Shown: positions 14,487-19,228 of the stretch, piece after piece
Layout: every line of letters begins with the position of its first letter
How positions within the stretch are numbered: the first letter of the stretch is position 1
Position numbers and translations under genes: made by a program
The notes under the pieces: generated by a model
Database searches by the model: none
What the model saw: the letters and a program-made list of their open reading frames with translations, nothing else
What the model was told of the DNA's origin: nothing
Origin: Candidatus Arcticimaribacter sp.
GTDB taxonomy: Bacteria; Bacteroidota; Bacteroidia; Flavobacteriales; Flavobacteriaceae
NCBI GenBank assembly: GCA_002708445.1
Contig: PAOB01000035.1
Location: forward strand, 1-33,399
Direction of reading: 5' to 3'
DNA length: 33,399 nucleotides

Positions 14487-15263
14487 ATGAATAAAAAACC
14501 ACTAATTCTTGTTACCAATGATGATGGCATTACAGCTCCAGGAATTCGTACACTAATCGAAGTAATGAATACTATTGGAGACGTAGTTGTAGTAGCTCCA
14601 GACAGTCCTCAATCAGCTATGGGTCATGCTATTACAATAAACTCTACACTTTATTGTAGCGAAATGAGTAATATTGTAGGGCCTCAAAAAGAATATCAGT
14701 GTTCTGGGACACCAGCAGATTGTGTTAAGTTAGCGATTAACGAATTATTGGATCGAAAGCCAGACATCTGTGTTTCGGGAATCAATCATGGATCTAATTC
14801 GTCAATCAACGTCGTCTACTCAGGAACCATGAGTGCAGCCATAGAAGCTGGGATTGAAGGAATACCTGCAATTGGTTTTTCTCTACTGGATTACCGTTGG
14901 AATGCAGATTTCAATCCACTAAAACCTTACATTGAAAAAATAACGCTTGCTTCTCTGCAAAACAAACAACGCGCAGATGTGGTTCTAAATGTCAATTTCC
15001 CGGTGTTACCTGATGGCGAAATCAAGGGTATCCGAGTTTGTCGTCAAGCAAAAGCAAATTGGGTTGAAAAATTTGACAAACGCCAAAGCCCAATGGGTAG
15101 AGATTACTATTGGCTTACAGGAGAATTTATTGATGAAGACAAGGGTAAAGATACAGACGAATGGGCTTTAAGTCAGGGATACGTTTCAGTTGTTCCAACT
15201 CAATTTGACTTAACAGCTCATAATGCAATTCAAGAACTAAATAGTTGGGGTTTTGAAAATTAA
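14487..15263 (+). CDS. surE: 5'/3'-nucleotidase SurE
   Basis: Divalent-metal nucleoside monophosphate phosphatase, implicated in stationary-phase survival and nucleotide salvage. The 258 residues begin PLILVTNDDGITAPGI, carrying the two metal-binding aspartates of the family. SGINHGSNSSINVVYSGTM (about 98-116) is the second conserved block, with the metal-ligand Asn and the Ser/Thr cluster, followed by EAGIEGIPAIGFSLL. Size and motifs agree with the family. First gene of the surE, small membrane protein, lpxB, comEC run. Confidence 0.96.
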   Translation: MNKKPLILVTNDDGITAPGIRTLIEVMNTIGDVVVVAPDSPQSAMGHAITINSTLYCSEMSNIVGPQKEYQCSGTPADCVKLAINELLDRKPDICVSGINHGSNSSINVVYSGTMSAAIEAGIEGIPAIGFSLLDYRWNADFNPLKPYIEKITLASLQNKQRADVVLNVNFPVLPDGEIKGIRVCRQAKANWVEKFDKRQSPMGRDYYWLTGEFIDEDKGKDTDEWALSQGYVSVVPTQFDLTAHNAIQELNSWGFEN

Positions 15264-15535: not shown

Positions 15536-16657
15536 TTGAAATATTACATCATCGCTGGAGAGGCTTCGGGAGACCTACATGCATCTAATTTAATGAAAGC
15601 CATATTGATTGAGGATCCTAAAGCTGTTTTCAGGTTTTGGGGAGGTGACAAAATGCTAGCGGTTGGTGGTACTTTGGTAAAACATTACAAAGAATTAGCC
15701 TTTATGGGTTTTTGGGAAGTGTTTATCAATCTCAAAACCATTTTAAATAATATTGCTTTTTGTAAGAAAGACATCCTCGAATACAAACCTCATGCGATTG
15801 TTTACGTTGATTACCCTGGATTTAATTTGCGTATTGCTGCCTGGGCAAAAAAACAAAGCTTTAAAAATCTTTATTACATCAGCCCTCAAATTTGGGCTTG
15901 GAAAGAAAAGAGAATTTCAAAAATTAAAAGAGACCTTGATGCCCTGTTTGTTATTCTTCCCTTCGAAGAAACTTATTTTAAAAAAAAACATAACCATGAG
16001 GTTCAGTATGTAGGAAATCCCTTGGTTGATGTAATTCAGGAGGCAATCCAGCAAAAAGATGATTTTAGGAATATCCAAAAACTGGATCAAAACATTCCAA
16101 TAATTGCATTATTACCTGGAAGTAGAAAACAAGAAATCATTAAAATGATGCCAACTTTTATTGAGGTTATTGAACGTTTTCCTCAATTTAAATTCATCGT
16201 CGCAGCAGCCCCAGGAATTGATTTGGAGTGGTATCAACAATTTTTAAAAGATCAGACTGTTCTTTTGCTTCAAAATCAAACATATTCCTTACTGAAAAAT
16301 AGTTTTGCCGCAATTGTAACCAGTGGGACTGCTACTTTAGAAACTGCGCTTTTCAAAGTTCCTCAATTCGTGTGTTATCGAAGTAGTTTTCTTAGCTTTC
16401 AAATTGCAAAACGAATCATAACTCTTCCTTTCATATCACTTGTAAACTTGATTATGAATCGAGAAGTTGTTACAGAAATTCTTCAAAATGATTTTACTGT
16501 AGAACGGATTGAAAAAGAATTAAAATCAATTACAGAATCCGAAAAAAGAGATAAGCAGCTTAAAGATTATGAACTGTTGAATCAAAAACTGTCTGCTGGA
16601 GGTGCTAGTGTAAAAACAGCAAAAGCGATTGTGAGTTTGCTTAAAAATAAAGTTTAA
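15536..16657 (+). CDS. lpxB: Lipid-A-disaccharide synthase
   Basis: Glycosyltransferase that joins UDP-2,3-diacylglucosamine and lipid X to form the lipid A disaccharide at the inner membrane. The 373 residues start YYIIAGEASGDLHASNLM, the family hallmark, and contain FWGGDKML, VYVDYPGFNLRIA (about 89-101), YYISPQIWAWKEKRI (about 115-129), VGNPLVD, ALLPGSRKQEI and the C-terminal VTSGTATLETALF. Start is TTG, one base after the preceding stop; no ATG fits the conserved N-terminus. Confirms a Gram-negative envelope. Confidence 0.97.
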   Translation: MKYYIIAGEASGDLHASNLMKAILIEDPKAVFRFWGGDKMLAVGGTLVKHYKELAFMGFWEVFINLKTILNNIAFCKKDILEYKPHAIVYVDYPGFNLRIAAWAKKQSFKNLYYISPQIWAWKEKRISKIKRDLDALFVILPFEETYFKKKHNHEVQYVGNPLVDVIQEAIQQKDDFRNIQKLDQNIPIIALLPGSRKQEIIKMMPTFIEVIERFPQFKFIVAAAPGIDLEWYQQFLKDQTVLLLQNQTYSLLKNSFAAIVTSGTATLETALFKVPQFVCYRSSFLSFQIAKRIITLPFISLVNLIMNREVVTEILQNDFTVERIEKELKSITESEKRDKQLKDYELLNQKLSAGGASVKTAKAIVSLLKNKV

Positions 16658-16678: not shown

Positions 16679-18721
16679 GTGAAGTTCCCAAATTTTACAT
16701 TAATCCCTCTTATTTTTTGTTTCGTTTTAGGTCTACTTTTTTCTTTCCACTTAGAAACAAACATTCTTTATTTTTCGTATTCTAGTCTTTTATTTTTATG
16801 TGTAATTGGATTGTTCTTAAGATGGTGGCTAAGGGATAAAAATTTTCTTTTCTTTCCTGTTCTTCTGTGTACATTAAGTTTTTCAATTGGAGTAAAAACA
16901 TGTATGCAGTCCCATGAAATTTCTCAAAATCATTACATTTTTTCATACAGCACCCAAAGTCATAATAATTTTCAGATTGAATTAACAGATCGGCTTCATC
17001 CTACAAAAAACCATAACAGATACTATGGTAAAGTTTTTGAAATTAACTCAAAAAAGACTTCATGGAAAGTGCTGATTCTTCATGAAAAGAAAGATTCTTT
17101 AAAAATAGAACTTGGAGAGTTCGTAAAAACCACAACACCTTTAATCCCAATGCAAAAACCAAAAAACATAGGCAGCTTTGACTACAAAAGATTTTTAAGT
17201 AATATCGGTATTTTACATCAGTTGAAATTGAGAGGCTCCTCATTCAGTACAAGTTCAGGAATTTCAATTAGTAGTCTTTTTAATAAATTCAAACAAAACA
17301 CAATTAATAAAGTAGAAAAAAGCATTTTCGTTGAAGAAACAAAAAAACTAATCCTTGCATTAATTCTTGGTGAACGAAGTGATGTCAATAGGGCTTGGAT
17401 GGATCGCTAAGCCTGAGCTGGAATTGTATACATGCTCGCTATTTCTGAATTACACATTGGCTTATTGATGATTCTTTTCAGTTGGATTTACAAACCGTTT
17501 GAGTATATAACGTATGGAAAATATGTTCGCGTTTCGATGATCATTTTTTTCTTTGGGGATATGCATTGCTGACTGGTGGAAGTCCATCAGTAATAAGAGC
17601 AGTAACCATATTTTCTTTGTTTAGTATTGGAAACTACATCAATAGAAGTCCGCCGACAATTTATCTTCTTATTCTTTCGTTTGGAACTTTGTTATTCATC
17701 AATCCACTTTACCTAAAGCAGCTTGGGTTTCAAATGAGCTATTTAGCAGTATTTGGAATTCTTTGCCTACATCCGTTGTTTGTAAATTTACTTCCAGTGT
17801 AAAAAGGCTTGCTCCATCGTTTTTGTAATATGACCGCAGTTACTCTTTCTGCTCAAATAGCAGAAACCCCAATTAGTATTTACTATTTCCATCAATTTCC
17901 AGGTTTGTTTCTGTTAACAAATTGGGTAGTTCTCCCCTTTCTTGCATTATTCCTCTATCTTGGAATTGGGGGTGTTTTCCTTCTTAATATGAATATCTTA
18001 CCCCAAACATTAATTTCAATTCTTGATTTAATGTCTTCTAAACTGAACCTTTTTGTGATGTGGATTGTGGATCAAGAAGATTTCTTTTTTGATGAATTGA
18101 GGATCAATATTTTTCAAGTAGGCGTTTTGTCACCATCCTAATTTTCATTTACATGGAAATAATAAACTCAAATAAAAAATATCTAATCGTTATGTTTTTT
18201 ATTACCCTTATGTTTCAATGGGGCTCCTTTCAAATCAATCAAGAAAACAAAAATTTAACTGCTCTTTGGCTTTTAGCTGACTATGAGAAAACAGTTTTTG
18301 CATACAAACGAGGAGAGGAGAAAAACTGACTGTTTTCTGTTCAGATTCAATAACCAAAGATGATCGAATACTAAAAGATTTAAAAAATCAATATCATGTT
18401 AAAACAATTTCTTTTGAATTTTTAAAAAATCATTATGTACTTGAAGATAAAATCCTAGATATTATTGAAGGGAATTGGTCCGAAAACTTGAAATTAGAAA
18501 ACAAAAAATTGAGTGTAGTTCTCAGAAAAAATACCCGATTGAATTTAGAAAGACTACTTCAAAGAGATGAAATAGTTGAGGTTATTGCTGATGCAAGCAG
18601 CTATCCCAATATTAAAAAGCAATGGAAGAAAACTTGCGACAATTACAAGGTGTTCTTTTTTGATACTCAAATAAAAGGGTCTTATTTATTTACCTCGAAA
18701 TCGAGGAACGAAACTTTTTAA
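16679..18721 (+). pseudogene. comEC: comEC/rec2 DNA-uptake channel, decayed
   Basis: Intact ComEC is the inner-membrane channel that takes up single-stranded DNA in transformation. Here its parts lie in order but in changing frames. Likely start is GTG 16679 (reading MKFPNFTLIPLIF; TTG 16673 is in frame). The N-terminal domain runs to ILGERSDVNRAWMDR, then TAA 17408-17410 and TGA 17414-17416 interrupt. The same frame continues AGIVYMLAISELHIG, where the conserved SGLH is SELH. One base is lost near the T run 17544-17550, restoring FLWGYALLTGGSPSVIRA. A TAA at 17800-17802 follows. A second one-base loss lies near 18125-18132, after NIFQVGVL, and a third at the A run 18321-18325. The last segment contains DASSYPNIKKQW and ends 36 bases inside the convergent thioredoxin gene. 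Three stops plus three shifts all in one gene, and intact neighbours, make sequencing error an unlikely full explanation. Confidence 0.9.
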
Positions 18722-19228
18722 ATAGTCCTGTAAATCATCAGGACCTTGAAAAACCATGTAATCTCCTTGTTTAATTATTTTTAGGTAAGGTTCAAGCTGT
18801 TGTGCAGTGTAATAACCAACTACTGGCATAATTGGATCACCATCTTCACTAAAAAAAACCATTGTTGGGTAGCCTTTTATCCCTAAAAACTGGGTGAATT
18901 GATGTGTCGCGTTCCTGCCTTTTCTTCGTTCATCATAATTTGGATTTGTGTATTTCTGGTCATAAAATTTGATCACTTCATCCCCTTCTGCATTGAATTT
19001 TACAGCATAGTAATGTTCAGAAACATAACGAACCAAATCAGGGTTTTTAAAGGTTTTGTTATCTAACAATTTACAAGGCCCACACCATGTTGTGTAAACA
19101 TCCATAATTATTTTTTTAGGCTCTTTTTTTTGAGCTTCAAGTGCTTCTGCCAAGCTCATCCATTCAATCTGTTGGGCGTAAGTAGTGACTGAACCTAAAA
19201 AAAATAAAATAAGAAATCTAACTTTCAT
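18686..19228 (-). CDS. Exported thioredoxin-fold protein with WCGPCK site
   Basis: A 180-residue protein with a signal peptide (residues 1-18, ending TTYAQ) and a thioredoxin domain whose active site is TTWCGPCKLLD (about 47-57), preceded by KKIIMDVY and followed by YPTMVFFSEDGDPI, which contains the cis-proline. It would act in the periplasm as a disulfide reductase or isomerase. It is the last gene of a minus-strand run after the peptide transporter (13-base gap). Its 3' end overlaps the tail of the comEC pseudogene by 36 bases on the other strand. Substrate unknown; a role in keeping exported peptidases reduced is only a guess from position. Confidence 0.9.
   Translation of the reverse strand: MKVRFLILFFLGSVTTYAQQIEWMSLAEALEAQKKEPKKIIMDVYTTWCGPCKLLDNKTFKNPDLVRYVSEHYYAVKFNAEGDEVIKFYDQKYTNPNYDERRKGRNATHQFTQFLGIKGYPTMVFFSEDGDPIMPVVGYYTAQQLEPYLKIIKQGDYMVFQGPDDLQDYLKSFVPRFRGK

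What the first reader, a model, noticed from the sequence alone, without database searches (positions are those of the whole stretch)
16679..18721. comEC is broken in at least six places while its neighbours are intact
Reading the three frames in turn recovers a nearly full ComEC, interrupted by TAA 17408, TGA 17414, TAA 17800 and three one-base losses (near 17544-17550, 18125-18132 and 18321-18325). The catalytic-region SGLH is SELH. The rest is still well conserved, so inactivation looks recent. Two of the shifts are at homopolymers, where sequencing error is possible, but the three stop codons are substitutions. The lineage may have lost natural transformation, or another channel replaces this one.
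Basis: partly seen in the sequence, partly recalled or inferred. Interest (0 to 1): 0.6.

Follow-up and report, generated by a model that had tools for sequence, protein, structure and literature searches.

The report
Broken DNA-uptake gene in decaying pathway
The gene for the channel that lets bacteria take up free DNA looks truly dead in this bacterium, and its sister species are losing the same gene and its partner genes again and again, each in its own way.

Summary
In detail: comEC (16679-18721) has stops at 17408, 17414 and 17800 and one-base shifts near 17549, 18127 and 18324. Assembly error is very unlikely: 96 copies of six flanking genes in 19 genomes of the genus (41,064 codons) hold no stop and one doubtful shift call at an N-terminal edge. 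Nor is it confined to this genome. In the 17 genomes where the locus can be judged, comEC is broken in 13: seven by point lesions, five reduced to a stub, one replaced. The seven point-lesion copies share no lesion, so I count at least seven independent losses, probably nine. dprA, comM and comF decay too (8 of 13, 8 of 13 and 6 of 16 decided loci), while no stop was seen in mutS or recN where found. I read this as repeated loss of natural transformation in a reduced-genome genus, caught at all stages. "Recent" holds only relatively: after the split from the nearest genome, roughly the last third of that branch, with wide limits. "Another channel" has no support. Decay of competence genes is a known phenomenon; the value here is the decay series.

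The parts
16679..18721 (+). comEC pseudogene (DUF4131 plus Competence domain), full length but in several frames
16679..17407 (+). longest surviving open stretch (243 codons, DUF4131 domain), ends at the first stop
17408..17410 (+). in-frame stop TAA
17414..17416 (+). in-frame stop TGA
17543..17552 (+). one-base frameshift in a run of seven T
17800..17802 (+). in-frame stop TAA
18124..18130 (+). one-base frameshift in a run of four T
18320..18326 (+). one-base frameshift in a run of five A
18686..18721 (.). last 36 bases of comEC overlap the 3' end of the opposite thioredoxin-like gene; this stretch is kept in the five deletion stubs
15536..16657 (+). lpxB, intact upstream neighbour and synteny anchor
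14487..15263 (+). surE, intact, synteny anchor
18686..19228 (-). thioredoxin-like gene, intact downstream neighbour and synteny anchor

Best explanation
The stretch is a unitary pseudogene of comEC, the inner-membrane channel that draws single-stranded DNA into the cell. It is one stage in a repeated decay of the natural-transformation pathway (comEC, dprA, comM, comF) across a reduced-genome genus of Flavobacteriaceae. Shown: the lesions, their absence from flanking genes, different lesions and deletions in sister genomes, raised dN/dS in the remnants, and mutS and recN without stops where found. Inferred: that the species cannot be transformed, and that selection for transformation was relaxed in the genus, so that each lineage lost the genes by its own first hit, then by further small lesions and in some by a large internal deletion. 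In this lineage the gene probably died after the split from the nearest sequenced genome.
For: Lesions. Control: no stop and one shift call (N-terminal edge of the peptidase gene of G016) in 96 gene copies, 41,064 codons, 2,768 of them the window against itself; comEC has 17 lesions in about 7,170 codons of 11 full-length or nearly full-length copies. Gene order around the locus is kept. Of 17 loci that can be judged: open in G006, G008, G018 and, up to a contig end, G002; point lesions in G000, G003, G004, G005, G011, G013, G017; stubs in G001, G007, G009, G012, G016; replaced in G010. Deletion edges differ in the alignment. dN/dS of remnants: 0.66 (G000-G016), 0.83 (G007-G001), 0.40 (G000-G007), 0.41 (G016-G007), against 0.05-0.12, 0.08-0.19, 0.04-0.09 and 0.03-0.09 in flanks of the same pairs, and 0.12 for open G018-G002. 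Partner genes broken. mutS full length without a stop in 15 of 19 genomes, recN in 16 of 19. In the family outside this genus, comEC is undetected in 9 of 29 genomes of 2.2 Mb or less and in 3 of 188 larger ones, Fisher p 7e-7.
Against: The window's genome is a 65% complete bin: dprA ends at a contig edge, the comF locus is not found, and the contig with comM flanks looks like a contaminant, so in this very genome only comEC is shown broken. Four sister comEC genes have a single lesion each, and any one of them alone could be an error. No reads, expression or transformation test. Habitat is unknown, so the cause of relaxation is inferred. The branch-specific dN/dS rests on 3-4 synonymous changes. 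Small genomes also tend to be less complete, which could inflate the size effect. Only two control genes beyond the flanks were tried, so general decay of dispensable genes is not excluded.
Confidence: 0.85

Rival explanations
1. Sequencing or assembly error at homopolymers breaks an intact gene.
For: All three shifts lie in homopolymers of 4-7 bases; the genome is a fragmentary bin.
Against: Three lesions are in-frame stops; 24 open ORFs of the window carry 817 homopolymer runs of four or more; flanks hold no stop; sister genomes show deletions of the same gene.
Confidence: 0.03
2. Selection, not relaxation, drives the loss: transformation became harmful (for example by conflict with mobile elements), so mutants were favoured many times over.
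For: At least seven comEC losses in one genus, and different genes hit in different genomes; conflict with mobile elements is proposed for comM loss in Acinetobacter baumannii (PMC11472951, passages); in G010 comEC is replaced by 4.7 kb and in G007 inserted genes lie at the comM stub.
Confidence: 0.12
3. One ancestral inactivation in the clade G000, G016, G007, G001, with later divergent decay.
For: All four are broken and form one clade (support 100/100); the direct branch dN/dS of G000 is about 1; sisters G007 and G001 may share a one-base gap.
Against: No lesion shared between the window and the stubs in the overlapping parts; only 3 stops in the window's copy, where 7.7-10.7 are expected per 0.1 neutral substitutions per site; its first 243 codons carry no lesion. 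A shared first lesion in the part deleted from the others cannot be excluded.
Confidence: 0.2
4. Another DNA channel replaces ComEC.
For: None found.
Against: No second Competence-domain gene in the genome as far as assembled; cytosolic partners also decay in relatives.
Confidence: 0.02
5. The 243-codon DUF4131 fragment is kept as a protein of its own.
For: It is open.
Against: Over 212 codons shared with G016, most of them in this fragment and some at the gene's 3' end, change on the G000 branch is not visibly constrained: 18 non-synonymous to 4 synonymous changes, ratio 1.1, limits 0.45-4.9.
Confidence: 0.03

Closest known systems
comM inactivation in Acinetobacter baumannii (PMC11472951, passages read)
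   Same: Repeated inactivation of a transformation gene within a narrow group, linked to loss of transformability
   Different: There mainly by mobile elements, in one gene within a species; here mostly by small lesions and deletions, in four genes across a genus, comEC included
Whole ComEC loss in Blattabacterium, Buchnera and other endosymbionts (PMC6299819, passages read)
   Same: ComEC lost with genome reduction, also within Bacteroidetes
   Different: There loss is seen as plain absence in whole genera; here genomes are 1.4-2.2 Mb and many stages of decay are visible
Endomicrobium symbionts of termite protists (PMC8809381, passages read)
   Same: Small genomes (1.12-1.37 Mb) with some pseudogenes
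   Different: They keep and express comEC, dprA, comM and comF with dN/dS below 1: the opposite outcome
Natural transformation of Riemerella anatipestifer (PMC8383284, passages read)
   Same: Named there as the first naturally competent member of Flavobacteriaceae; deletion of dprA, comEC, recA or comM abolishes transformation
   Different: Functional pathway, while here the genes are broken

Membership tests
ComEC/Rec2 DNA channel (DUF4131 + Competence) | DUF4131 domain at the N-terminus | tested here: met
   E 1.3e-16, residues 36-188 of the first piece
ComEC/Rec2 DNA channel (DUF4131 + Competence) | Competence domain PF03772 | tested here: met
   profile positions 20-62 (just under cut-off), 64-141 and 156-237 in three pieces; 1-57 and 63-237 in the genome search
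ComEC/Rec2 DNA channel (DUF4131 + Competence) | one uninterrupted reading frame | tested here: not met
   three stops, three shifts
Unitary pseudogene | intact orthologue at the same locus in relatives | tested here: met
   G018, G008, G006 between lpxB and the thioredoxin-like gene
Unitary pseudogene | no functional copy elsewhere in the genome | tested here: inconclusive
   single PF03772 locus, but the genome is 65% complete
Unitary pseudogene | relaxed selection on the remnant | tested here: met
   pairwise dN/dS 0.66 against 0.05-0.12 in flanks, with both copies of that pair broken; branch estimate wide
Loss of natural transformation | other pathway genes lost in the same genome | tested here: inconclusive
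   dprA, comM and comF not assembled or uncertain in G000; all three broken or removed in the nearest genome G016
Loss of natural transformation | cells cannot be transformed | not testable with these tools
   no culture or assay at hand

The most novel reading that the evidence does not exclude
Natural transformation is being actively selected against throughout this genus: within one group of close species the pathway was switched off at least seven times, each time by hitting whichever of comEC, dprA, comM or comF came first, while DNA repair genes stayed intact. That would make the genus a natural replicate experiment on when bacteria are better off without DNA uptake.
Probability: 0.15. 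Interest if true: 0.7.

Novelty: new member of a known kind. Interest (0 to 1): 0.42.

Why it matters
ComEC is nearly universal (96% of genomes encode one such protein or a fragment of it; PMC6299819, abstract passage), and why it is kept so widely is an open question. A genus in which open, freshly broken, half-decayed and deleted copies stand side by side, with unbroken neighbours as a clock, allows that question to be dated and compared: which gene goes first, how fast the rest follows, and what changes in the genome when uptake stops. In the data here no fixed order is seen: G006 has open comEC, comM and comF but a broken dprA; G008 open comEC, dprA and comF but a broken comM; G005 a broken comEC with the other three open.

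Tried and rejected
Assembly error (rejected by the flank control). A second comEC (none). A retained DUF4131 protein (no visible constraint). Phase variation by slippage: rejected as a general account because many lesions are stop codons. The search tool's 'open_frame_aa' column proved to read through stops, so intactness was recomputed. Contig C14 of the window's genome, which carries comM flanking genes and only a 23-residue comM tail, was dropped as evidence: apart from one 50-base piece at 90% it is only 65-74% identical in DNA to the relatives compared and has 39% G+C against 34.5% in the window, so it may be a contaminant. The comF reference was the wrong ORF (a neighbour) and was replaced. 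A stop call in G008 comEC at reference residue 6 lies ahead of its 667-codon open frame and was not counted. dprA of G007 (first 45 residues off frame) was left undecided. comEC of G014 and G015 and comM of G011 and G015 end at contig edges and were left out. Undecided or not found: dprA in G000, G002, G011, G015, G017; comM in G000, G010, G014, G017; comF in G000, G002, G018. Searches for this pattern in this group listed no paper whose title or abstract start describes it; listings only, apart from passages of the papers in Closest known systems and of PMC10219603 (competence proteins more often present in brackish than in marine bins).

Full report
The observation. The window is a whole contig (C23, 33,399 bases) of a 1.56 Mb, 65% complete genome in 55 contigs. 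Between lpxB and a thioredoxin-like gene lies a comEC gene that can be followed end to end only by changing frame. The stops TAA 17408, TGA 17414 and TAA 17800 and one-base losses near 17549, 18127 and 18324 are all there. The pieces match DUF4131 and three successive parts of the Competence domain, one of these just under its cut-off. The 24 other main ORFs that I listed in the window are open.

Not an artefact. All three shifts are in homopolymers, so error had to be tested. I aligned six flanking genes (ctp, surE, lpxB, thioredoxin-like, transporter, peptidase) of the 19 genomes of the genus with the same frameshift-aware method, as far as they were in the fetched stretches: 96 gene copies, 41,064 codons, 2,768 of them the window against itself. 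There was no stop and one shift call, at the N-terminal edge of the peptidase gene of G016, ahead of where most of the others start to align. Three in-frame deletions of 8 or more residues were called, two in G017 and one in G004. The 11 full-length or nearly full-length comEC copies held 17 lesions in about 7,170 codons; lesions within one dead gene are not independent, so the count by genome, 7 of 11, is the fairer figure. In the window alone, 24 open ORFs carry 817 homopolymer runs of four or more.

The genus. The order ctp-surE-lpxB-comEC-thioredoxin-transporter is the same wherever that part is in the fetched stretch, and the peptidase follows in all but G005, where it was not found in the stretch. 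Of 19 genomes, two (G014, G015) end in a contig edge at the locus. Of the other 17, comEC is open in G006, G008, G018 and, as far as the contig goes, G002. It carries point lesions in G000 (the window; 6), G003 (1), G004 (3), G005 (1), G011 (1), G013 (4) and G017 (1). It is a stub in G001, G007, G009, G012 and G016 (219-607 bases between the neighbours' stop codons instead of about 2,000), and in G010 the space holds 4.7 kb with other ORFs. Four of the five stubs keep recognisable pieces of both gene ends; in G009 little more than the overlap with the thioredoxin-like gene is left of the 3' end. In the alignment each stub has its own deletion edges. The last 36 bases of comEC overlap the thioredoxin-like gene on the other strand, which explains why they are kept.

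How many losses. The seven point-lesion copies share no lesion, and the window shares none with the stubs where they overlap; the sister stubs G007 and G001 may share a one-base gap. Since loss of this kind hardly reverts, that makes at least seven independent inactivations (G000, G003, G004, G005, G011, G013, G017). Counting the G009/G012 pair and G010 as events of their own gives nine, which the tree favours but the lesions cannot prove. On a tree of the flanking proteins, open G008 groups with broken G003 and G013 (100/100), and open G018 and G002 fall in a group (100/100) with broken G004, G009, G012 and the window's clade; eight of 16 inner branches are weak. The tree tool's own minimum, which lets states revert, is 3.

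Partner genes. dprA is open in G003, G005, G008, G014 and G018 and broken in G001, G004, G006, G009, G010, G012, G013 and G016 (15 lesions called in G016): 8 of 13 decided, with G007 undecided. comM is open in G003, G005, G006, G009 and G018 and broken or removed in G001, G002, G004, G007, G008, G012, G013 and G016: 8 of 13. comF is open in ten genomes and broken in G001, G003, G004, G007, G012 and G016: 6 of 16. In all, 16 of 19 genomes have at least one of the four genes shown broken, and none has all four shown intact; G018 comes nearest, with comF in an assembly gap. As controls, mutS is full length with no stop in 15 of 19 genomes and recN in 16 of 19; in the others they are partial at contig ends, split over contigs or not found (mutS not found in G000, recN not found in G016), and no stop was seen in any match. 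In the window's own genome dprA, comM and comF cannot be judged; in its nearest relative G016 all three are gone or broken.

When. Pairwise dN/dS of the remnants is 0.66 (window against G016), 0.83 (G007 against G001), 0.40 (window against G007) and 0.41 (G016 against G007), each far above the flanks of the same pair (0.03-0.19), and 0.12 for two open copies, G018 and G002. Against the open but distant G018 the window's gene gives 0.16 with saturated synonymous sites, so that pair says little. Three stops, with 7.7-10.7 expected per 0.1 neutral substitutions per site, give about 0.033 since inactivation (0.006-0.115 over the models tried); synonymous change on the window's branch in six flanking genes is about 0.08-0.13 per site. 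Non-synonymous change in comEC on that branch, 12 in 281 sites, is about 0.4 of that rate. Both point to death in roughly the last third of the branch since the split from G016. Against this, the direct within-gene ratio is 1.0-1.1 (limits 0.31-4.9), which alone would allow an earlier relaxation. So 'recent' is right only relative to the nearest sequenced genome, which already differs by about 0.25-0.5 synonymous changes per site.

Why. Among 217 genomes drawn from the family outside this genus (asked for at 85% completeness or more), comEC is undetected in 9 of 29 of 2.2 Mb or less and in 3 of 188 larger ones (sizes as listed, rounded; presence was not checked for lesions in each, and the smaller genomes tend to be less complete). 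The genus itself has genomes of 1.4-2.2 Mb. I therefore favour relaxed selection under genome reduction. Selection against transformation remains possible and is the more interesting reading. What keeps the gene elsewhere is not answered here.

What is known. Decay of transformation genes is described in A. baumannii and in endosymbionts (PMC11472951, PMC6299819; passages), and the converse, retention in small symbiont genomes, in Endomicrobium (PMC8809381; passages). Four searches of the open library listed no paper on this group that describes the pattern, which is no proof that none exists. The case is a new member of a known kind, unusual for showing many stages within one genus. That ComEC is the channel and DprA, ComM and ComF its partners is taken from these papers and from general knowledge, not tested here.

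Noticed in passing
18686-18721: comEC's 3' end overlaps the opposite thioredoxin-like gene by 36 bases; the five deletion stubs keep this stretch, so the overlap may set where deletions can stop.
   Followed up: partly
L239 (contig C14 of the window's genome, 1-13456): 39% G+C and mostly 65-74% DNA identity to the relatives compared; together with a second recN on contig C37 it suggests contaminant contigs in this bin.
   Followed up: partly
L064 (G010, between lpxB and the thioredoxin-like gene): comEC is replaced by about 4.7 kb with three long minus-strand ORFs, one of 1,089 codons, and a faint 60-residue comEC trace.
   Followed up: no
L209, 5432-9510 (G007, comM locus): Beside the comM remnant lie three ORFs absent from the comM loci of G009 and G018; they match another locus of G018 at 83-85% DNA identity, so the insert may be mobile.
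   Followed up: no
L069 (G017), lpxB and peptidase genes: In-frame deletions of 69 and 41 residues relative to the window's proteins, possibly assembly faults in that genome.
   Followed up: no
family search: G071, G173, G241: Three larger genomes (2.7-3.6 Mb, 95-100% complete) also lack a detectable Competence domain.
   Followed up: no
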